A model generated the notes under the pieces. That model did no database searches. It was not told where the DNA came from and was given only the letters and a program-made list of their open reading frames with translations. Shown here one piece after another: positions 6,718-31,260 of a stretch of DNA of 33,970 nt. A program made the translations under genes and the position numbers. The DNA is from a virus, in IMG/VR virus record IMGVR_UViG_3300028400_000021, positions 1 through 33,970 of that record; one strand, given 5' to 3'. Within the stretch, counting starts at the first letter, position 1, and each line of letters starts with the position of its first letter.

Positions 6718-9700
6718 ATGGCTATTACACGTATTAAAAATAACCAGATTACTGATGCAACAATTGATGCATCAACAAAAGTCGTGCCAAATTCAGTTAC
6801 AGCAGGACTTCTAGAAAATAATTTAACATATGGTTCGAATCTTACCGTTACCGGTGATCTTATCGTTAACGGTACTACAACAACTATTAGTACAACAAAT
6901 ACCGTTGTTGAAGATCCAGTTCTTTTGTTAGGATCTCAACAAACAACCCCATTTGCTGACCTTGGTTTTATTGGGGAACGTGGAACTGCATCAAGTGTTG
7001 CATTTGTATGGGACGAAAGCAATAACAAATTTAGAACAGGATTTACATCAGACACCGATACTTCGGGTGCAGTTACTTTTACAGGCGATGCTGATTTACA
7101 AGTTGGTGGTTTAACTGCTACTGCTACATCATCTTTTACATCATTAAATCTAAGTGGCAATTTATCAGTTAATGGCACAACCACTCTAACAGGTCTTGTA
7201 ACAGCAAATGATATTGATACAGGCACAATGGACGCTACCGGAAATGCTACCGTTGGCGGTACTCTTAGTGTTACTGGTGCAACAACACTTTCGTCAGTTA
7301 CAGCATCAGGTCTTGCTAACTTAGATGGTGGTATTGCAGTTGATACCAATGCATTTACTGTAGCAGGTGATGGAACTGGTAACACAGCAATTGCTGGTAC
7401 ACTTGATGTTACTGGTGCAGTAACTTTTAATACTGATGTTACATTGTCCGGCGGTTTAGGCGACACATTTACTATCACTGATGGCGGCGTTACTCCAACA
7501 ACTACTTTTGAAGTTGCAAGCGATACTGGTAATACAACAATTGGTGGCACATTAACAGCTTCAAGTACCTTAACTGTAGCTGGTTTAACTGATTTAAATG
7601 GCGGGTTAACAGTTGGAAACGTAACACTTGATTCAGGATCAACTTTTGATGCAGGCGCTAATGCGTTAACAAATCTAGCTGATCCATCAGCAGCACAAGA
7701 CGCAGCTACTAAGGCCTATGTTGATTCAACAATTGCTAGTAGTACATTCACATTAACAGACGGTACAAACTCACAAGTTATTGCTGGTGGCGATACATTA
7801 ACTGTTAATGGTACAGCAAACGAAGTTGAAGTTACAGTTTCAGCTACAGATACACTTACAATCGGTTTACCAAATGACGTTTCAATTGCAGGTACATTAG
7901 CAGTAGCTGGTGTTTCGACACTTAGCGGTCTATTAAATGCTAATGGCGGTATTGCAGTTGATACATCAAACTTCACAGTTGATGGAACCACTGGTGCTGT
8001 TACTACAGCCGGATCACTAACAGCAGCTGGTCTTGCTAATCTTAATGGTGGTATTGCAGTTGATACATCAAACTTTACAGTTGATGGAACCACTGGTGCC
8101 GTTACTACAGCAAGTACTTTAACAGTAGCTGGTTTAACTGATCTAAATGGCGGTTTAACTGTTGGTGATATTACCGTTGATGCAACAAGTACACTTGATG
8201 CTGGTGCTAATAAATGGACAAACTTAGCAGATCCAACACTTGCACAAGACGCAGCTACTAAGGCTTATGTTGATAATGTTTCTTCAACTGGATGGACACT
8301 TAGTGATGGTACAACTTCACAAGTTGTTCAAATTGGCGATACCGTAACACTTCAAGGTACTGCCAACGAAGTTGATGTTCTTGTATCAGCACCTGATACA
8401 ATGACAATTGGTTTACCAAACGATGTAACAATTGGAAATGCATTAACTGTTACGGGTGCTGGTTCAGTTGGTGGAACACTTACTGTTACTGGTGCAACTG
8501 ATCTCAATGGTGGTTTAACTGTTGGTGATACCACTTGGGATACTGCAAGCACCATTAACGCGAACTCTAACAAGATTATTAACCTAGCAGATCCGACAGC
8601 AGCACAAGACGCGGCTACTAAGGCTTATGTTGATAATGTTTCTTCAACTGGATGGACATTAACAGACGGTACAACCTCTCAAACTATCCAGATTGGTGAT
8701 ACCGTAACACTTCAAGGTACTGCTAACGAAGTTGAAGTTTCGGTAACTGCTATTGATACAATGACAATTGGTTTACCAAACGACGTATCAATTACAAATA
8801 ACCTTACTGTAGCAGGTCTTGCTAATCTCAATGGTGGTATTGCAGTTGATACCAATGCGTTCACGGTAGCAGATGCTACTGGTAATACAGCAATTGCTGG
8901 TACACTCGATGTCGCTGGAACTACTACATTAACTGGTGGTTTCGTTGCAAATGGAACAGCTGACTTTAATGGTGCTGTTACAATGGGTAATGTTACTTTT
9001 GGTGCAGGAAGCACCATTGATGCCGGTGCCAACAAAATTACTAACGTAGCAGATCCGACAGCAGCACAAGATGCTACTACTAAGGCATACGTTGATGCTC
9101 TTGTTACTTCTGGTACAGTATGGCGCGATCCAATTCGCGATCCAAATTTTGTTGGTGTACAAGGTACAGAGCCAGCTTCGCCACAAACAAATACAGGTTA
9201 TATTGCAACTGCATCGGGCACCTGGACAGGTGGTATTGCTGTTACCGCTGGTGATTATATGTTCTGGAATGGTAGTGCCTGGTCTAAGGTACAAAATCCA
9301 GTAGTTGCAGGCGATCGCTTTATTATTGCTGGTGAAAATGGAAATATTGAATCAACCCTTTATGATATTGGTTTCCGCACTGGTGACATTGTTGAATATG
9401 TAAGTGGTCCATTTGATCAATTCTCATCATGGTCGACACCACAAGACGATGGATACCAAGTAATTAACTTCACTGTTAAAAAGACAAGTACAGATTCAAC
9501 AGGATTTGCAAATGATGCAACTGTTTACGTACTTGATATTTCGACTGATGTTGGTAGCGGCGAAACATTAGCACAAGTACAAGTAACTGGTTCAGCAGCA
9601 CAGACTATTGGCGATTTAATTAACGAGATTAATACTGATCTTGATTCAACATTTGGTGCTGGCAATGTTGTAGCATCACTTGAGCCAGAAGGTCATATTC

Positions 9701-12486
9701 ATATTGCCAATACCGCTAATTCAAATCGCGTAACAATCAAAGAAGGTACAGCAGCAGGTACCGGAATGCTTGCTACACTTACTGATTTTGATAAGATTTT
9801 AGCAGGTATCGAGGATGGTACTACTGTTATCGCGAATGATCCAGATAGTATTGATTATGGTCATACTTATACATACTCGCACGAAGGAAATGTTTGGGTC
9901 GAAATTGCTGGTCCAGGTTCAATTGAAGCTGGTAACCAACTATATTATAGCGGTAACATTCTGAATGTTAGTGAAGGTGCTGGAAGCGGTCTCGATGCTG
10001 ATTTACTCGACGGTCAAGACAGCCCATATTACTTAGATTGGACAAATACAACTAATAAACCAAGCCCAACCATTACTTTAGCTGGTGATGCAAGTGGTTC
10101 GATTACACTCACAGAACTTAATAGCGGTACACTTACCGTAACAGTTCTTGATGATAGCCATAATCACATCATTTCAAATATTGATGGATTGCAATCGGCT
10201 CTTGATGCTAAGCTAAATGATACCGGCGATACAATGGACGGTGCCTATACCGTAACAGCTACCGGATCAATTAGTTGGTCAACTGCTCCAACACTCGGCG
10301 ATCATTTAACAAATAAAACTTACGTTGATGGTTTAATTGCTGCTGGTTTTACATTACAAGATGATGCAGCAACACCAAATACCACAACGATTTCGGGCGG
10401 CGATACACTTACCGTTAATGGTACCACTAACGAAATAGAAGTTCTTGTTGGAACCGATTCTCTTACAATTGGATTACCAGACAATGTTACAATAACTGGC
10501 TTACTTTCAGCTAGTGGTGGTATTAGTACCGATGGTGCGTTTACAGTAGCAGATACAACAGGTAACGTTGCTACAACAGGTACACTAACAGTTTCGGGAC
10601 TTTCATCTCTTGATGGTGGTATTGATGTTAGTAGTAGTGCATTTACAGTAGCAAGTGGTACTGGTAATGTGTCTACAAGTGGTACATTGAATGTTACTGG
10701 CGCGGCTACTTTTGGTACAGATGTAACATTAAACGGTGGTGCTGGTGATACCTTTACTATCACTGATGGTGCACTTACACCAGCAACTACTTTTGAAGTT
10801 GCAAGCGATACTGGTAACACAACTATTGCCGGTACTGCTACAGTTAGTGGTCTTGCTAATCTTAATGGTGGTATTGCAGTTGATACATCAAACTTTACAG
10901 TTGATGGAACGTCTGGTGATGTTAGCACTGCTGGAACGTTAACCGTAGCTGGTTTAACTGATCTAAATGGCGGTTTAACTGTTGGTGATGTAACACTCGA
11001 CGCGGCATCAACTTTTGATGCTGGTGCTAATAAACTTACAAACTTAGCAGATCCAACAGCAGCACAAGATGCAGCTACCAAGGCTTATGTTGATGCACAG
11101 TCAGCAACTGGTTTCACATTACAAGATGATGCAGCAACACCAAATACCACTGTTATTTCGGGAGGTGATACACTTACTGTTAATGGTACCACTAACGAAG
11201 TTGACGTAGTTGTTGGAACAGATACTCTTACAATTGGTTTACCAAACGACGTAACAATTGGTAATAACCTAACTGTTACAACAAATGCAACAGTTGGCGG
11301 CGCGCTAAGTGTTACTGGTACTGCTACGGTTAATGGCGTTGCTAATCTCAACGGTGGTATTGCAGTCGATACATCAAACTTCACAGTTGACGGAACCACT
11401 GGTGCTGTTAGTACTGCAAGCACCTTAACTGTTAGTGGTGCAACTTCATTAGGAAGCACACTTAGCGTTGTTGGCCTTGCTAACTTAGATGGTGGTATTG
11501 CAGTTGATACTAATGCATTTACTGTAGCAGGTGATGGAACCGGTAATACAGCAATTGCTGGTACACTTGATGTTACCGGCGCAACTTCTTTAACAACTAC
11601 TGGTATTACAGGAGTTCTAACAGTTACCGGATCAGCAGCAATTGATAACATTACTATTAACGGTAATTCAATTGATGCTACTGCTGGTACAGAGATCGCT
11701 ATTAATGATGCAGGTGGCGATTATAATGTACGTATTGAAGGTAACTCAGATACTAACCTTGTTGTAGTTGATGCAGGTACTGACACCGTTAATATTGGAA
11801 CAGCAACACCGGTTACCGATGTTAAGTTCCAAGTTGGCGGTACTTCTTCAGTAATACTTCCAATTGGTACAACAGCACAACGTCCAGCTACTGGTGTTAC
11901 CGGTATGCTACGTTACAATACAACACGTAATAAGTACGAGTACTTTGATGGAAGCGTTTGGCAAGGAATGGGAACTGAATTCACTGTTATTGCAAGTGAA
12001 GTATTTAACGGTGATGGTTCAACAACAACCTTTACTTTATCGAGTGCTCAAACAACGGCATCTTGTATTGTAAGTATTAACGGTATTGTTCAGCAACCAA
12101 CCACAGCATATAGTGTAACTGGTACAACGTTAACATTTACACAAGCACCAGCAGTTGGTGATGTTATTGAAGTACGTGAAATTACTACAACTACTTCAAT
12201 TGTTGCAGTATCTGATGGTGTTTCAACACTGCAAGCAAATAATACACAGTTTGATTTAACTGGACATATTATTCCGACTGTTGATGTTACTTACGATCTC
12301 GGTAGCGCAACAAACCGCTTCAGAGATCTTTATCTAAGTGGTGCTACTATTGATTTAGGTGGTGTTAAGATTAAGAATAATGCTGGTACAGTTCAATTCT
12401 TACAAAGTGATGGAGTAACACCAGCACCAGTTGATCTTGGTACAACACTTGACCCAGATGTAACAATTGATGGTGGTACATATTAA
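6718..12486 (+). CDS. Giant repetitive tail-fibre protein
   Basis: 1922 residues, one of the longest fibre-type proteins expected in a T4-like phage. The shaft is made of many imperfect repeats: GGIAVDTSNFTVDGTTG, TVAGLTDLNGGLTVGD, GANKLTNLADPTAAQDAATK followed by AYVD (five copies plus one degenerate TNKTYVD), and NDV-I-NLTV segments. About residues 800-1150 form a less repetitive insert beginning TVWRDPIRDPNFVG and including GSGLDADLLDGQDSPYYLDW, a motif also seen in T4 gp37-type fibres. The C-terminus has the QRPATGVTGMLRYNT / YEYFDGSVWQ / SINGIVQQP module and ends with DLGSATNRFRDLYLSGATID. Acts outside the cell in host recognition, probably as a trimer. Which T4 fibre it replaces cannot be told. 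Large antisense frames over it are by-products of the repeats. Confidence 0.85.
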   Translation: MAITRIKNNQITDATIDASTKVVPNSVTAGLLENNLTYGSNLTVTGDLIVNGTTTTISTTNTVVEDPVLLLGSQQTTPFADLGFIGERGTASSVAFVWDESNNKFRTGFTSDTDTSGAVTFTGDADLQVGGLTATATSSFTSLNLSGNLSVNGTTTLTGLVTANDIDTGTMDATGNATVGGTLSVTGATTLSSVTASGLANLDGGIAVDTNAFTVAGDGTGNTAIAGTLDVTGAVTFNTDVTLSGGLGDTFTITDGGVTPTTTFEVASDTGNTTIGGTLTASSTLTVAGLTDLNGGLTVGNVTLDSGSTFDAGANALTNLADPSAAQDAATKAYVDSTIASSTFTLTDGTNSQVIAGGDTLTVNGTANEVEVTVSATDTLTIGLPNDVSIAGTLAVAGVSTLSGLLNANGGIAVDTSNFTVDGTTGAVTTAGSLTAAGLANLNGGIAVDTSNFTVDGTTGAVTTASTLTVAGLTDLNGGLTVGDITVDATSTLDAGANKWTNLADPTLAQDAATKAYVDNVSSTGWTLSDGTTSQVVQIGDTVTLQGTANEVDVLVSAPDTMTIGLPNDVTIGNALTVTGAGSVGGTLTVTGATDLNGGLTVGDTTWDTASTINANSNKIINLADPTAAQDAATKAYVDNVSSTGWTLTDGTTSQTIQIGDTVTLQGTANEVEVSVTAIDTMTIGLPNDVSITNNLTVAGLANLNGGIAVDTNAFTVADATGNTAIAGTLDVAGTTTLTGGFVANGTADFNGAVTMGNVTFGAGSTIDAGANKITNVADPTAAQDATTKAYVDALVTSGTVWRDPIRDPNFVGVQGTEPASPQTNTGYIATASGTWTGGIAVTAGDYMFWNGSAWSKVQNPVVAGDRFIIAGENGNIESTLYDIGFRTGDIVEYVSGPFDQFSSWSTPQDDGYQVINFTVKKTSTDSTGFANDATVYVLDISTDVGSGETLAQVQVTGSAAQTIGDLINEINTDLDSTFGAGNVVASLEPEGHIHIANTANSNRVTIKEGTAAGTGMLATLTDFDKILAGIEDGTTVIANDPDSIDYGHTYTYSHEGNVWVEIAGPGSIEAGNQLYYSGNILNVSEGAGSGLDADLLDGQDSPYYLDWTNTTNKPSPTITLAGDASGSITLTELNSGTLTVTVLDDSHNHIISNIDGLQSALDAKLNDTGDTMDGAYTVTATGSISWSTAPTLGDHLTNKTYVDGLIAAGFTLQDDAATPNTTTISGGDTLTVNGTTNEIEVLVGTDSLTIGLPDNVTITGLLSASGGISTDGAFTVADTTGNVATTGTLTVSGLSSLDGGIDVSSSAFTVASGTGNVSTSGTLNVTGAATFGTDVTLNGGAGDTFTITDGALTPATTFEVASDTGNTTIAGTATVSGLANLNGGIAVDTSNFTVDGTSGDVSTAGTLTVAGLTDLNGGLTVGDVTLDAASTFDAGANKLTNLADPTAAQDAATKAYVDAQSATGFTLQDDAATPNTTVISGGDTLTVNGTTNEVDVVVGTDTLTIGLPNDVTIGNNLTVTTNATVGGALSVTGTATVNGVANLNGGIAVDTSNFTVDGTTGAVSTASTLTVSGATSLGSTLSVVGLANLDGGIAVDTNAFTVAGDGTGNTAIAGTLDVTGATSLTTTGITGVLTVTGSAAIDNITINGNSIDATAGTEIAINDAGGDYNVRIEGNSDTNLVVVDAGTDTVNIGTATPVTDVKFQVGGTSSVILPIGTTAQRPATGVTGMLRYNTTRNKYEYFDGSVWQGMGTEFTVIASEVFNGDGSTTTFTLSSAQTTASCIVSINGIVQQPTTAYSVTGTTLTFTQAPAVGDVIEVREITTTTSIVAVSDGVSTLQANNTQFDLTGHIIPTVDVTYDLGSATNRFRDLYLSGATIDLGGVKIKNNAGTVQFLQSDGVTPAPVDLGTTLDPDVTIDGGTY
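7948..8146 (+). repeat. 102-base tandem repeat inside the fibre gene
   Basis: Two adjacent near-identical copies, offset by 102 bases (34 codons), encode GGIAVDTSNFTVDGTTGAV. Copies differ at a few mostly third-codon positions. Further copies occur near 10870 and 11350. Confidence 0.8.
8221..8800 (+). repeat. 360-base tandem repeat inside the fibre gene
   Basis: The sequence around 8221-8430 recurs at exactly +360 bases (8581-8790). Stretches such as ctaaggcttatgttgataat and cgtaacacttcaaggtactg are identical in both copies. The period of 120 codons keeps the reading frame and marks a recent duplication of a shaft unit. Confidence 0.8.
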
Positions 12487-25551: not shown

Positions 25552-28500
25552 ATGGCACTTGTTTCACCAGGCGTTGAGGTAACTATTATTGATGAAGCAC
25601 AATATACCTCAGCAGCACAGAATACAGTACCTTATATTTTAATTGCTACAGCGCAAGATAAAGTAGATCCATCAGGTACAAATATTGCACCAGGCACTAC
25701 AAAAGAATCAGCAGATAATTTGTATTTAATTACAAGTCAACGAGAATTAGTTAACACTTTTGGAAATCCAAAATTTTATAAAACTGCTGGCGGAAACCCT
25801 ATTCATGGTCATGAATTAAATGAATATGGTTTAATGACAGCATATAGTGTTTTAGGCGTTACAAACCGAGTTTATATTCAGCGAGTTGATATTGATTTAG
25901 CTGAACTCGAAGCATCATTAGTTCGACCTGAAGGCAAACCTAATAACGGAACATATTGGTTTGATTTAGCTGAATCGAGATATGGTTTGCTTGTATGGAA
26001 TTCTGCTTCGAATTCGTTTAATGCCATAGAACCTATTCTTATTACAGATACAGCAGATCTTGATAGTGGTGTTCCAGCAGCGAGTATTGGTACGATTGGT
26101 TCTTACGCAATTGTAACAACTAATACAAATAATCCAACATATTACAAAAACAAAAATAACGCATGGGTACTTATTGGTTCAGATGAATGGAAAGCAAGTA
26201 TTCCTACTATCGTTGGTAATAATGCTAACCCAACACTTACTGTTGGCGATGATATGGTTATTAACGGAACTACTATTGCAGCAACCGGAACTACTGTTGA
26301 TACACTTGTTGTTGATATTAACACTGCAAATATTCCTGGTGTAACTGCTGGCAAAGAAAATGATCGTTTAGCTTTATATATTGAAAGCCCAGACCCGGGT
26401 CAAAGTCCAGATAGTTCAATTGATGTTACTTTAACTATTGCTGCTGGTGGCACAGGCGATCTTCTCGGAGCCCTTGGTATTGCAGCTGGTTCGTACGCCG
26501 GACCTATTGTTGAACATGCATCTCATATCAATATTCCACGTTGGAGAACAACTGATACAACACCACGTCCAAGCGGTTCAATTTGGGTTAAAACATCATC
26601 TGTTACAGATGGTATGAAAATTATCATTAAACGTTATAATTCAACATCAAATGAATTTGATATTCAAGGTGCACCTGTTTATGAGAATGATTGGGCAGCT
26701 AATGCTGATTTAGATCCGGCAGCCGGAGGTAAAAATATTACTCAAGGTGCTACTTACGTTCAAGTTGACGTAAATGAAAATGACACTGGTACCTTTAAGA
26801 TTTTTGAACGTTTAGCAGGCGAAACTGTTGTAATTGGTGCAACTGTTAACCCAACATTCACCGTCGGTGATGAATTCACTGTTTCTGCAAGTGCAGCAAA
26901 TTCGTCGAGCTTGTTAGCGCCCGTAACAGTTACAATGACCGGAACAACAGCAGCAGATTTTGTTGCTGATGTTAACGGTGCTGGTATTCCAAATGTTGAA
27001 GCAGAAGTTACTTCAAATGGTCGTGTGCAGATCAAACACACTGGCGGCGGCGTTATGGTGGTTGAAGATGTTACTGGCGGCCCACTTCTTGCAGCTGGTA
27101 TTACCGCTGCACTTGAAAATGTTCGTACACGCAATAATGGACAGTTGATTATAAGTAATTGGCTACCATTAACTTATGTTGCTAGTAATGTTGAGCCTGG
27201 ACAGGATCCAATTGATGGAACACGTTGGTACTATCCAGCTTTTGACGAAGTGGATATTATGATTCACGAAGGTGGAATTTGGAAAGGTTACCGCAACGTA
27301 ACAAATGACATTCGTGGTCATGATTTAACACTTACTGATCCAAATGGTCCTATTTTTAGTACAATAGCACCTGAATTCCAATCAGACGGATCATCTCTTG
27401 AATATGGTGATCTTTGGATTGATACCAGCGATTTAGAGAATTATCCATTGCTTTACCGTTGGGAAAATGTTAATGGTGTTGATAGTTGGGTAAAAATTGA
27501 TTTAAGTGACCAAGTATCAACAAATGGAATTTTATTTGCTGATGCACGTTGGGCAAATAATGATTCAACAGATCCAATTTCCGATGATATTCCTTTAATT
27601 AGCGATTTACTTGGAAGCGACTATGTTGACATTGACGCACCAAACCCAGCTTTATATCCAGATGGAATGTTACTTTGGAACACACGACGTAGCGGTTTTA
27701 ATGTTAAAGAATTCCGTGTTAATTATTTTAATGCGAATGATTTTACAAGTGCAATTCTTCCAACCGAAACCAATGCCTGGGTAACAGTTTCTGGACTTAA
27801 AGATGATGGATCAGCAAACTTCGGTCGTTTAGCACAACGAGCAATGATTGTAAGTGCAATGAAAGAAGCAATTGATACCAATCCAGATATACGAGAAGAA
27901 CAGCGTCAGTTTAATCTTTACGCAGCTCCTGGATATCCAGAACTTATACCAAATATGGTTGCACTTAATAATGAACGTGCTAATACTGGATTTGTAGTAG
28001 GTGACACACCATTAAGACTACCAAATACCGGAAGCGAAATTCAAAAATGGGCAACTAATAATAATGGTTTAGGTTTACCAACAAATGACGGTCTTGCAGT
28101 AAATGATGAATATTTAGGTGTATTTTATCCAAGCGGCAGAACCACTGATCTTGATGGTACAACAATTGTAGTTCCGCCAAGTTATATGATGATTCGTACA
28201 ATTATTCATAGTGATGAACAGTCATATCCTTGGTTAGCACCAGCAGGTACACGTCGCGGACAAATTGATAATGTTGACGGAATTGGTTATCTAGATGCAA
28301 TTACGAATGAATTTAAGCCAATGCTTACAAGACAAGGCATTCGTGATGTATTGTACTCAAATAATGTTAACCCAATTACCTTTATGTCGGGTGCTGGATA
28401 CATTAACTTTGGTAATAAAACAACCAAGCCAGGTTCAGCATTAGATCGCATTAACGTTTCGCGTTTGGTGTCATATATTAGACAACAAGCTGATGCTATT

Positions 28501-28761
28501 GGCAAATTGTTTGTGTTTGAGCCAAATGATAAGTTAACACGAGACGAAATCAAAGGTCAAATGGAACGTATGCTTAATGATTTAATTGCAAAACGTGGTC
28601 TTTACGATTATGTTGTAGTATGCGATGAGTCGAATAATACACCAGCACGTATTGATCGTAATGAAATTTGGGTTGATATTGCTATCGAACCTGTTAAAGC
28701 TGGTGAATTCATCTACATTCCGGTTCGCCTTAAGAACACAGGTGAAATTTCCGGCCAGTAA
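25552..28761 (+). CDS. 18: Tail sheath protein gp18
   Basis: 1069 residues. The N-terminus MALVSPGVEVTIIDEAQYTS and the C-terminal third (LFVFEPNDKLTRDEIKGQME ... YVVVCDESNNTPARIDRNEI WVDIAIEP) are standard for T4-like contractile sheaths; the subunits form the contracting tube around gp19. T4 gp18 has 659 residues, so about 400 extra residues are inserted between the conserved ends. Two of the inserts share a repeat: NPTLTVGDDM ... TGTTVDTLVVDINTANIPGV at about residues 226-265 and NPTFTVGDEF ... TGTTAADFVADVNGAGIPNV at about 433-480. Such exposed domains probably decorate the outside of the tail. Exact late promoter and a strong terminator make it a single-gene late unit. Confidence 0.95.
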   Translation: MALVSPGVEVTIIDEAQYTSAAQNTVPYILIATAQDKVDPSGTNIAPGTTKESADNLYLITSQRELVNTFGNPKFYKTAGGNPIHGHELNEYGLMTAYSVLGVTNRVYIQRVDIDLAELEASLVRPEGKPNNGTYWFDLAESRYGLLVWNSASNSFNAIEPILITDTADLDSGVPAASIGTIGSYAIVTTNTNNPTYYKNKNNAWVLIGSDEWKASIPTIVGNNANPTLTVGDDMVINGTTIAATGTTVDTLVVDINTANIPGVTAGKENDRLALYIESPDPGQSPDSSIDVTLTIAAGGTGDLLGALGIAAGSYAGPIVEHASHINIPRWRTTDTTPRPSGSIWVKTSSVTDGMKIIIKRYNSTSNEFDIQGAPVYENDWAANADLDPAAGGKNITQGATYVQVDVNENDTGTFKIFERLAGETVVIGATVNPTFTVGDEFTVSASAANSSSLLAPVTVTMTGTTAADFVADVNGAGIPNVEAEVTSNGRVQIKHTGGGVMVVEDVTGGPLLAAGITAALENVRTRNNGQLIISNWLPLTYVASNVEPGQDPIDGTRWYYPAFDEVDIMIHEGGIWKGYRNVTNDIRGHDLTLTDPNGPIFSTIAPEFQSDGSSLEYGDLWIDTSDLENYPLLYRWENVNGVDSWVKIDLSDQVSTNGILFADARWANNDSTDPISDDIPLISDLLGSDYVDIDAPNPALYPDGMLLWNTRRSGFNVKEFRVNYFNANDFTSAILPTETNAWVTVSGLKDDGSANFGRLAQRAMIVSAMKEAIDTNPDIREEQRQFNLYAAPGYPELIPNMVALNNERANTGFVVGDTPLRLPNTGSEIQKWATNNNGLGLPTNDGLAVNDEYLGVFYPSGRTTDLDGTTIVVPPSYMMIRTIIHSDEQSYPWLAPAGTRRGQIDNVDGIGYLDAITNEFKPMLTRQGIRDVLYSNNVNPITFMSGAGYINFGNKTTKPGSALDRINVSRLVSYIRQQADAIGKLFVFEPNDKLTRDEIKGQMERMLNDLIAKRGLYDYVVVCDESNNTPARIDRNEIWVDIAIEPVKAGEFIYIPVRLKNTGEISGQ

Positions 28762-28762
28762 G

Positions 28763-28801
28763 TTAAGCAATTAACTATATTAAAAAGCCCCTTAATTGGG
28801 G
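28763..28801 (+). repeat. 39-base direct repeat, copy 1 (contains gp18 terminator)
   Basis: Identical over 39 bases (starting TTAAGCAATTAACTATATTA) to 30545-30583. The pair brackets the homing endonuclease gene, with a period of 1782 bases. Confidence 0.95.
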
Positions 28802-28808
28802 CTTTTTT
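28782..28808 (+). terminator. Rho-independent terminator of gp18
   Basis: AAAAAGCCCC (28782-28791), loop TTAATT, GGGGCTTTTT (28798-28807), plus a further T. A 10-bp perfect stem with T-run, 20 bases after the gp18 stop. Confidence 0.9.
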
Positions 28809-28936
28809 ATTGTCTCCATATATATATATTTCTCGTGACCACAATCCCAAATTCTTAAATAACCATTTTTCTTTGATATATTCTTGTTGCATACGATTAT
28901 TTAAAGAGGAAGATATTTTTCATATATTTTTTTCAG

Positions 28937-28944
28937 CATAAATA
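28937..28944 (+). promoter_or_regulatory. Putative T4-type late promoter (CATAAATA) of the homing endonuclease
   Basis: CATAAATA predicts a start near 28950, 29 bases before ATG 28979. The stretch 28809-28936 is A+T-rich and shows no gene. Confidence 0.55.
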
Positions 28945-28978
28945 GATTTAACAGGTTAAATAGCAGGTTCAGAGCATT

Positions 28979-30535
28979 ATGAAATGTAAGATATGTCAAA
29001 AAGAATTAAAAATGATTACAAACACTCATCTGAAATTGCACGGCATTACAATCGACGAGTATAAAAAGAAATATGGAGATTTAGTTGACGATGAATTTCG
29101 GAAGCTAAAAAGCCAGCAAAGTTCCGGAAAGAATAATCCAAATTTTGGAAAGAAGCATGATGCTAAAACCAGAAAAATCATCAGCGAAAAACTCAAAGGG
29201 CGTGAAGCCTATAATAAAGGCATACCAATGACTGAGGAACAGAAACAAAAATTAAGTCAAAAAGCAAAAGAGAGAAATGAAATTTGGAAAGAAACCAATA
29301 GTCATCCCCGGACAGGAAGAAAGCATACCGAAGAAACTAAACAAAAAATTCGTGAAAAACGAAAGAAACAAATAATCAAACCCGAATCAGTTCAAAAAGC
29401 AATCGAAACAAAACGTCGTAACGGATACAATTTGGCATTTTTCAAAGGCAAGAAACACACTGCCGAAACCAAAAAAATTATCAGCCAAAAATCAAAAGAA
29501 TCTAATAAATTGCGATCGCAAAAAGCTCTTGAAGAAACAGCTCAGCGTATTTCTAAATATGGATATTCAATTGTCAAAGTTGACAGCATCAATGCCACTA
29601 TAAAATGCGAAAATGGTCATGAGTTTACTTTTACGCGACAATATCTAACTGAATCAAAATTTAAAAAAGAATTATGTCCCGAATGTTACCCAAGAGAATT
29701 CTATATTAGTAAAGGAGAATCGGAAATAGCAAATTTTCTAAGACAATTTACAGAAGTAATTCAAAACACCAGAAAAATAATTCCACCAAAGGAGATAGAC
29801 ATTTATCTACCAGAATACAATATCGCCGTTGAGTATAATGGTTTATATTGGCACTCAGAAAAATTCAAAGAAAAAAATAATCATTATGAAAAATCACAAA
29901 AATGCTATAAAAAAGGTATCAAGTTAATTCAAATTTTTGAAGATGAATGGATTAATAATCCTGAAATTGTTAAATCACGATTGCTATCGTATATGAATAA
30001 AAATAAAACCATATATGCCCGAAAATGCAGTATTAAGGAAATTAATTCTAAATTAGCGAATGAATTTATCAATAAAAATCATATTCAGGGTCGAGGGCGA
30101 AGTAACGTCAGAATTGGATTATTTTATAAAGATCGACTTGTTGCTGTTATGACATTCCTGAATGGCGACAAATCAAAATCGTTAAACGGTTGGGAATTAA
30201 ATAGGTATTGTTCAATTATTGGATACAATGTAGTTGGTGGTGCGTCAAAACTTTTCAAATATTTTATTGAAAAGTATTCACCTGATCAAATTACGACGTT
30301 TGCAGATTTACGATGGGCATTTGGATCAAAATTTTATGAAAAATTAGGTTTCTCATTCGTATATAATTCGCCGCCAAATTATTGGTACGTTTACCCAAAT
30401 GAAATGAAACGCCGCCATAGATTTTCATTGCGTAAAAAAGATACGGTATTATCTGAGCGAGAACTTCGTGATTCTGAAGGATATATTCGAATATATGATT
30501 GCGGGCACGCCAAATATATATGGCATAGAAGATAA
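28979..30535 (+). CDS. Free-standing homing endonuclease (NUMOD3 repeats, Vsr-like core)
   Basis: 518 residues. Residues 1-35 form a MucR/Ros-like zinc finger (Cys3, Cys6, His17, His21: MKCKICQKELKMITNTHLKL). Three NUMOD3-type DNA-binding repeats follow (NPNFGKKHDAKTRKIISEKL, TGRKHTEETKQKIREKRKK, FKGKKHTAETKKIISQKS). Around residues 272-293 PKEIDIYLPEYNIAVEYNG then LYWHSE, followed by GIKLIQIFEDEW, is a Vsr/EDxHD-type nuclease core. The C-terminal 170 residues (KNHIQGRGRSNVRIGLFYKD, GGASKLFKYFIEKY, FYEKLGFSFVYNSPPNYWYV) look like a GNAT-type fold used as an extra DNA-recognition part. It sits between gp18 and gp19 and is flanked by 39-base terminator repeats. Such enzymes cut uninserted genomes to spread their own gene. 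Confidence 0.85.
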   Translation: MKCKICQKELKMITNTHLKLHGITIDEYKKKYGDLVDDEFRKLKSQQSSGKNNPNFGKKHDAKTRKIISEKLKGREAYNKGIPMTEEQKQKLSQKAKERNEIWKETNSHPRTGRKHTEETKQKIREKRKKQIIKPESVQKAIETKRRNGYNLAFFKGKKHTAETKKIISQKSKESNKLRSQKALEETAQRISKYGYSIVKVDSINATIKCENGHEFTFTRQYLTESKFKKELCPECYPREFYISKGESEIANFLRQFTEVIQNTRKIIPPKEIDIYLPEYNIAVEYNGLYWHSEKFKEKNNHYEKSQKCYKKGIKLIQIFEDEWINNPEIVKSRLLSYMNKNKTIYARKCSIKEINSKLANEFINKNHIQGRGRSNVRIGLFYKDRLVAVMTFLNGDKSKSLNGWELNRYCSIIGYNVVGGASKLFKYFIEKYSPDQITTFADLRWAFGSKFYEKLGFSFVYNSPPNYWYVYPNEMKRRHRFSLRKKDTVLSERELRDSEGYIRIYDCGHAKYIWHRR

Positions 30536-30544
30536 GAGTCTTAA

Positions 30545-30583
30545 TTAAGCAATTAACTATATTAAAAAGCCCCTTAATTGGGG
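30545..30583 (+). repeat. 39-base direct repeat, copy 2
   Basis: Identical to 28763-28801. After the repeat the two copies diverge at once (C is missing here before the T-run). Confidence 0.95.
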
Positions 30584-30589
30584 TTTTTT
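30564..30589 (+). terminator. Rho-independent terminator of the homing endonuclease
   Basis: AAAAAGCCCC, loop TTAATT, GGGG, then six T. One C is lost compared with copy 1, so the stem contains a G-T wobble pair but keeps the T-run. Confidence 0.85.
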
Positions 30590-30603: not shown

Positions 30604-30611
30604 GATAAATA
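30604..30611 (+). promoter_or_regulatory. Putative T4-type late promoter (GATAAATA) for gp19
   Basis: GATAAATA; predicted start near 30617, with AGGAG (30631-30635) 7 bases before ATG 30643. Confidence 0.65.
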
Positions 30612-30642: not shown

Positions 30643-31260
30643 ATGTCAGTTTCATCATTAACAAAAATGACGGTTCCAGTACCTGGTGGTCAAAGCGCAA
30701 CAAGCCAAGGTTTGTTAATGCCTAAATTAAAATATCGTTTTCGCGTTATTTTCGAGAATCTAGGTGTTTCAACTCCGCGTACTGAATTGACAAAACAAGT
30801 AATGGATTTCACACGTCCTAACCCAACATTTGAAAATATCGACATTCATGTTTATAACTCGATTGTTAAATTAGCTGGCAAGCCAAGTTGGGCTGATGTT
30901 TCATGTAATATTCGCGATGACGCAAGTGGCACTGTTACAAAACTCGTTGGTGAGCAAATGCAGAAGCAATTTGATTTTATGGAACAAGCCTCAGCAGCAT
31001 CAGGAATCGATTATAAATTCACAACTCGTGTCGAAATGCTTGACGGTGGTAATGGTGCTCACGAGCCGCAAGTTCTCGAAACATGGGAATTATATGGATG
31101 CTATTTACAAAGTGCTAATTATAATGATGTGAATTACGGTGCTAATGAACCAGCAACAATTAGTCTTGTCATTCGTTTTGATAACGCAGTTCAAACACCA
31201 CTTGGTGCAGGAATTGGCGCAGACGTTGGGCGTACACTTGGCTCAAACGTTACAGGCTAA
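30643..31260 (+). CDS. 19: Tail tube protein gp19
   Basis: 205 residues, the typical length in aquatic T4-like phages (T4 gp19 has 163). The conserved opening KYRFRVIFENLGVS, the TRPNPTFENIDIHVYNSIVK stretch, the AGKPSWADVSCNIRDDASG region and the WELYGCYLQSANYNDVNYGA segment identify the tail tube fold, which stacks as hexameric rings inside the sheath and carries DNA. Its own late promoter and SD would support the high copy number needed. It directly precedes a larger relative of the tube family. Confidence 0.93.
   Translation: MSVSSLTKMTVPVPGGQSATSQGLLMPKLKYRFRVIFENLGVSTPRTELTKQVMDFTRPNPTFENIDIHVYNSIVKLAGKPSWADVSCNIRDDASGTVTKLVGEQMQKQFDFMEQASAASGIDYKFTTRVEMLDGGNGAHEPQVLETWELYGCYLQSANYNDVNYGANEPATISLVIRFDNAVQTPLGAGIGADVGRTLGSNVTG

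What the first reader, a model, noticed from the sequence alone, without database searches (positions are those of the whole stretch)
28763..30589. 39-base terminator repeats bracket a homing endonuclease gene
Perfect 39-base copies at 28763 and 30545 flank the endonuclease with its own late promoter, between gp18 and gp19. The insert therefore arrived with, or created, a second terminator, leaving both neighbours properly ended. Recombination between the repeats would remove the cassette cleanly (1782 bases).
Basis: seen in the sequence. Interest (0 to 1): 0.7.

Follow-up and report, generated by a model that had tools for sequence, protein, structure and literature searches.

The report
Homing-gene insertion duplicated a tail-gene terminator
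In this large bacterial virus a selfish DNA-cutting gene sits between two tail genes, and the transcription stop signal that once stood alone there now stands on both sides of it; related viruses show the same kind of scar, and one matched pair shows it appearing together with the insertion.

Summary
In detail: 28763-28801 and 30545-30583 are identical (39/39; 44/45 over 45 nt). They flank a 518-aa homing endonuclease gene between a tail-sheath and a tail-tube gene. None of 70 distinct empty sheath|tube gaps in relatives has two terminators (48 have one). Collapsing the repeat would leave a 99-nt gap (empty median 94). The second terminator was most likely created, not carried in: it copies the sheath's own 3' flank. 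The same scar recurs in related phages. In L129/L130 (99.9% identical to L128 on the tube side) a second endonuclease gene came with a direct copy of the last 78 nt of the sheath gene plus terminator, which L128 lacks. L202 has three copies, both extra ones starting at the same sheath position. Best model: one-sided homing. A sheath-proximal break is repaired by copying terminator and endonuclease gene, then joined to the unmatched right end. Deletion by repeat recombination is plausible but unobserved.

The parts
25552..28761 (+). tail sheath gene (gp18-like, 1069 aa)
   Evidence: PHROG 10581 E 8e-212; Pfam Phage_sheath_1C
28763..28807 (+). T1: first repeat copy, sheath 3' flank plus bidirectional intrinsic terminator (hairpin 28782-28807)
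   Evidence: same hairpin at the same place in L001, L111, L112
28817..28879 (-). relic of the C-terminus of an earlier antisense endonuclease gene (..NGYLRIWDCGHEKYI..), apparently frameshifted, its former stop abutting the T1 T-tract
   Evidence: profile of 48 family tails hits it at E 2.4e-9 in a six-frame scan of the whole window; the only significant hit besides the real gene
28937..28944 (+). T4-type late promoter box CATAAATA of the endonuclease gene, 42 nt before ATG
   Evidence: in antisense relatives the box sits 36-43 nt before ATG in 13 of 29, opposite-strand control 1 of 29
28979..30535 (+). Hef-like homing endonuclease, 518 aa: N-terminal finger-like motif (Cys3, Cys6, His17, His21) and NUMOD3, Vsr-like nuclease (about aa 241-341), Mom-like GNAT domain (aa 347-518)
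30545..30589 (+). T2: second repeat copy, 39/39 identical, then a T-tract that aligns with the second T-tract of empty relatives; strong hairpin on + strand only
30604..30611 (+). late promoter box GATAAATA of the tube gene
   Evidence: NATAAATA present in 53 of 70 distinct empty gaps
30643..31260 (+). tail tube gene (gp19-like, 205 aa)
   Evidence: PHROG 4542 E 3e-52

Best explanation
The sheath|tube junction is the residence of a family of free-standing homing endonuclease genes. The ancestor had sheath - one terminator - late promoter - tube (shown by empty relatives). In this lineage an antisense endonuclease gene, ending at the sheath terminator, was once present and is now a relic (relic shown). 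A sense-oriented endonuclease gene with its own late-promoter box then occupied the gap. The terminator duplication is best read as the scar of one-sided (illegitimate) homing. A recipient genome was broken near the sheath 3' end (inferred). The sheath-side end copied sheath - terminator - endonuclease gene from a donor (inferred). The new end was then joined by little or no homology to the trimmed right end of the break, which still began with the recipient's own sheath 3' flank and terminator (inferred; the product is shown). Result: sheath - T1 - endonuclease - T2 - tube. T1 still ends the sheath transcript and T2 ends the endonuclease transcript before the tube promoter (predicted from sequence). 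The direct repeat should allow precise loss by recombination (untested).
For: Empty relatives have one terminator or none, never two. T2 carries sheath 3' flank, and its downstream sequence aligns with the empty sites. Before/after pair: L128 (one antisense endonuclease gene) against L129/L130, 99.9% identical over 3.8 kb on the tube side; L130 has a second endonuclease gene plus a direct copy of the last 78 nt of sheath and the terminator, same polarity as the window. L202: two extra copies of the last 67 nt of sheath plus terminator, both starting at the same base. Copies of the terminator elsewhere: L152/L221 full hairpin; L111/L203, L116, L122 start at or beside the loop; L147/L215 start at the T-tract. 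Self-repeats at E<=1e-6 in 7 of 51 non-redundant occupied loci (one of them, L184, endonuclease tail only) against 0.22 expected from cross-locus comparison. Precedent: one-sided td intron homing in T4 gives illegitimate junctions at microhomology, and free-standing endonucleases cut neighbouring genes (PMC2988022); SegB breaks cause tandem duplications with microhomology (PMC13096335).
Against: No before/after pair exists for the window itself. Junction microhomology is short or absent (1-5 matches in the 10 nt before the junction). The start of the duplicate varies from -78 to +38 relative to the sheath stop, so the cut site is not fixed by these data. No cleavage has been shown. Most occupied sites carry no duplicate, so duplication is a by-product of some events, not of all.
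Confidence: 0.66

Rival explanations
1. The endonuclease cassette carries its own 3' terminator and arrived with it (moron-like unit: promoter, gene, terminator).
For: PA5oct has the same gene family at the same gap with two terminators of different sequence, the endonuclease stop codon lying in the second hairpin. L169 has a hairpin 57 nt downstream of the gene.
Against: In the window T2 is identical to T1 including sheath-flank sequence. Sense relatives L008/L108 and L121 have no second terminator. Cassettes beside different sheath terminators have correspondingly different copies.
Confidence: 0.12
2. The terminator was tandemly duplicated first by replication slippage at the hairpin, and the endonuclease gene later landed between the copies.
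For: Palindromes can promote slippage (general knowledge); T4 recombines at 6-10 bp microhomologies (PMC9391042).
Against: 0 of 70 distinct empty gaps have two terminators. In L130 the duplication and the endonuclease gain together separate L130 from L128.
Confidence: 0.08
3. Breaks at the terminator come from cruciform cutting by a resolvase (T4 endonuclease VII type), not from the endonuclease itself; the gene is a passive insert.
For: Three duplicates start in or beside the hairpin loop (L111, L116, L122).
Against: L130 and L202 start 67-78 nt upstream, inside the sheath gene. The same endonuclease family recurs at the gap across many lineages.
Confidence: 0.08
4. Assembly artefact of the metagenomic contig.
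For: The window is a virus record of 33,970 bases and reads are not available.
Against: The two copies have distinct flanks and differ at their 3' edge. The equivalent L130 structure is found in two metagenomes (L129, L130).
Confidence: 0.04

Closest known systems
Illegitimate (one-sided) double-strand-break repair in T4 intron homing, as reviewed in PMC2988022 (Parker et al. 1999 cited there)
   Same: endonuclease break, copying of the mobile gene from one homologous side, microhomology or non-homologous junction on the other
   Different: here a free-standing gene, in natural phages, and the unmatched end leaves a direct duplication of gene end and/or terminator
Hef / SegH-type free-standing homing endonucleases of T4-like phages (Sandegren 2005, cited in PMC13096335; not held)
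   Same: relatives are annotated 'Hef-like'; intergenic, next to conserved genes
   Different: different target gap (sheath|tube of large myoviruses) and frequent antisense placement with the stop codon inside the host gene's terminator
SegB-driven segmental amplification in T6/T4 (PMC13096335)
   Same: homing endonuclease break leads to direct duplications that can collapse
   Different: SegB amplifies neighbouring genes under selection; here the duplication is the join of an insertion
REase-Mom fusions of jumbo phages (PMC7824862)
   Same: nuclease domain fused to a Mom-like GNAT domain
   Different: described there as restriction-modification; here the fusion behaves as a site-resident homing gene with NUMOD3 and finger-like motifs
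Lambdoid morons (promoter-gene-terminator inserts; mentioned in PMC1524935)
   Same: gene with own promoter between insulated neighbours
   Different: here the terminator is a copy of the neighbour's, not part of the incoming unit

Membership tests
free-standing homing endonuclease gene | homing-type nuclease domain plus modular DNA-binding motifs | tested here: met
   I-Bth0305I catalytic domain by profile (E 3e-4) and fold (TMt 0.79); NUMOD3 above cut-off; I-TevI DNA-binding domain E 2e-4
free-standing homing endonuclease gene | occupied and empty alleles of one site in related genomes | tested here: met
   70 distinct empty gaps against 64 non-redundant occupied loci at sheath|tube
free-standing homing endonuclease gene | cuts the empty allele near the insertion site and is inherited by repair | not testable with these tools
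   only footprints: duplicates starting at the sheath 3' end or terminator
Mom DNA-modification family (PF25680) | curated Pfam score cut-off | tested here: not met
   19.1 against 27.1 bits
Mom DNA-modification family (PF25680) | Mom-like GNAT fold and ELNR / FAD.R motifs | tested here: met
   best Foldseek hit 8bv8 (E 2e-7), VIA Z 12.7 over 162 residues; motifs align in profile comparison
transposon with target-site duplication | duplication of fixed short length | tested here: not met
   duplicated lengths range from about 23 to 167 nt with variable start
intrinsic terminator | GC-rich hairpin followed by a T-tract, more stable than shuffles | tested here: met
   -15.7 and -17.0 kcal/mol, 0 of 200 shuffles as stable; termination itself not tested
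moron (promoter-gene-terminator cassette) | terminator belongs to the incoming cassette | tested here: not met
   T2 copies sheath 3' flank; several other sense members lack a second terminator

The most novel reading that the evidence does not exclude
A lineage of nuclease-Mom fusion endonucleases uses the tail-sheath terminator as its dock. Aberrant homing repeatedly copies the sheath end and terminator, building ladders of endonuclease genes each with its own terminator copy. The gene can switch between an antisense state sharing the sheath's bidirectional terminator and a sense state that may be served by a duplicated one.
Probability: 0.35. Interest if true: 0.75.

Novelty: new variant of a known kind. 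Interest (0 to 1): 0.58.

Why it matters
How a free-standing homing gene first enters a gap without damaging essential late genes is an open question in T4-type phage biology. Here natural phages preserve the scars: the repair that inserts the gene can also duplicate the neighbour's terminator, so both neighbours stay insulated at once and the insert is bracketed by a repeat that could remove it. Matched before/after genomes make the model directly testable.

Tried and rejected
Megablast of the region in isolated phages: no match. Exact search of the hairpin region in viral contigs: none, so no near-identical empty strain. Rfam: no RNA family. Idea that T2 came from inversion of an antisense cassette: rejected, because T2 lies in the same orientation as T1 with the sheath flank attached. 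Idea that the relic is an inverted piece of the present gene: unlikely, only 74% complementary. Idea of fixed-length target-site duplication: rejected (lengths vary). The first late-box control (reversed string) was invalid because ATAAATA reads the same reversed; redone with the opposite strand. The L184 self-repeat is endonuclease tail only and is not counted as terminator duplication. A search of relatives by genome kinship was not possible for a virus record. Scan of bacterial/archaeal genomes with the endonuclease gave only distant or mis-binned hits. One search ended in a print error after giving its count.

Full report
OBSERVATION. The repeat is exactly as described: 39 of 39 bases identical at 28763 and 30545, 44 of 45 when extended. 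Apart from repeats inside the tail-fibre region, no other direct repeat of 28 nt or more was found in the window. Both copies fold as terminator hairpins on the coding strand (-15.7 and -17.0 kcal/mol). T1 also folds well on the other strand (-15.6), T2 less so (-8.7). The flanking genes are a tail sheath and a tail tube gene. The ORF between is a 518-aa Hef-like homing endonuclease.

WHAT THE SITE LOOKS LIKE ELSEWHERE. Tube- and sheath-based searches brought 92 viral loci. Nearly all have an empty gap: sheath stop, usually one hairpin, late box NATAAATA, ribosome site, tube. Of 70 distinct empty gaps, 48 have one terminator-like hairpin by my criterion, 22 none, and none has two; the median gap is 94 nt. 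Collapsing the window's repeat would leave 99 nt. (My hairpin criterion is strict: it scores T2 itself as absent because of its G-U pair, so counts of one and none are approximate; a reading of the sequences also shows no empty gap with two.)

THE ENDONUCLEASE FAMILY LIVES HERE. Profile searches with the endonuclease show that its closest relatives mostly sit in this same sheath|tube gap. In the first set, 43 loci are antisense and 17 sense. In the enlarged non-redundant set of 64 occupied loci, 35 are single antisense, 20 single sense, 8 hold two endonuclease stretches, and one holds other genes. PA5oct, an isolated Pseudomonas jumbo phage, has a 40% identical gene at the same gap. In the antisense state the gene ends against the sheath terminator: in 24 of 31 distinct loci its stop codon lies inside the hairpin. 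On the endonuclease tree orientation needs at least 6 changes forced by starred branches, 11 in all (quick tree, some long branches).

HISTORY IN THE WINDOW. Between T1 and the endonuclease's promoter lies the decayed C-terminus of another endonuclease gene on the minus strand (28817-28879; E 2.4e-9 in a whole-window six-frame scan). Its former stop abuts T1, as in antisense relatives. L111 and L112, which carry antisense genes of the same clade, have the identical hairpin GCCCCTTAATTGGGGC at the same place. The lineage probably held an antisense gene before the present sense one.

HOW THE SECOND TERMINATOR AROSE. T2 contains the sheath 3' flank, not only the hairpin, and is followed by sequence that aligns with empty relatives (GGTTTTTT, 12 nt, ATGATAAATAA). 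So the left part (sheath-T1-endonuclease) and the right part (T2-tube) each look like a complete piece meeting at the sheath end. The same arrangement occurs in relatives. L128 has one antisense gene; L129 and L130, 99.9% identical to it on the tube side, have a second one plus a direct copy of the last 78 nt of the sheath gene and the terminator. L202 has two extra copies, both starting 67 nt before the sheath stop at the same base. L152/L221 has a full hairpin copy. L111/L203, L116 and L122 have copies starting in or beside the loop, L147/L215 in the T-tract, and L126 a diverged copy. Self-repeats at E<=1e-6 occur in 7 of 51 non-redundant occupied loci (L184 by endonuclease tail only) against 0.22 expected from cross-locus comparison. 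These are the marks expected if a break near the sheath 3' end is repaired on the left by copying a donor and on the right by joining to the trimmed, unmatched end. One-sided homing with microhomology junctions has been shown for the T4 td intron, and free-standing T4 endonucleases cut neighbouring genes (PMC2988022). SegB breaks yield direct duplications (PMC13096335). T4 recombines at 6-10 bp microhomologies (PMC9391042), so a 39-bp repeat should be able to collapse; this is inference.

WHAT IS SHOWN AND WHAT IS NOT. Shown: the repeat, the empty state with at most one terminator, the relic, the recurrence of sheath-end/terminator copies beside inserted endonuclease genes, and one before/after pair. 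Inferred: the break, its position, the one-sided repair, termination in vivo, and excision. A second terminator is not obligatory, since sense relatives L008/L108 and L121 lack one.

THE ENZYME. An AlphaFold2 model (mean pLDDT 83, pTM 0.55) and searches show a Vsr-like nuclease domain (I-Bth0305I, TMt 0.79) and a C-terminal GNAT domain whose best Foldseek match is phage Mu Mom. The Pfam Mom model scores below its cut-off (19.1 against 27.1), but motifs ELNR and FAD.R align. REase-Mom fusions in jumbo phages were described earlier as restriction-modification systems (PMC7824862). The fixed residence of this branch at one gap suggests that it also homes; whether the Mom-like domain modifies DNA is untested.

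VERDICT.

Noticed in passing
window 30017-30532 (endonuclease residues 347-518): Mom-like GNAT domain fused to a Vsr-like nuclease and NUMOD3; possible self-protection or DNA modification by a homing endonuclease.
   Followed up: partly
L116:988-2688 (-): A methyl-accepting chemotaxis protein gene (sCache_2, HAMP, MCPsignal) lies in the sheath|tube gap of a phage contig, between a half-terminator copy and the tube gene.
   Followed up: no
L007:4283-5791 (-): A 4-kb insert at the same gap holds an N6/N4 DNA methylase gene and no endonuclease of this family.
   Followed up: no
L202 8534-10220 (sheath-forward strand): Tandem genes of 92-138 aa with the motif YRNSDG..HREDGPA next to the endonuclease ladder.
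   Followed up: no
L083:6580-6700 (PA5oct): The endonuclease stop codon lies in the loop of its own second terminator hairpin.
   Followed up: no
window 6718-12486: Gene of 1922 aa with many internal repeats of 60-300 nt, tail-fibre-like.
   Followed up: no
L001:5449-7000 and L005:5590-7000: Different inserted ORFs, with only partial similarity to the endonuclease, occupy the same gap after the same type of terminator.
   Followed up: partly
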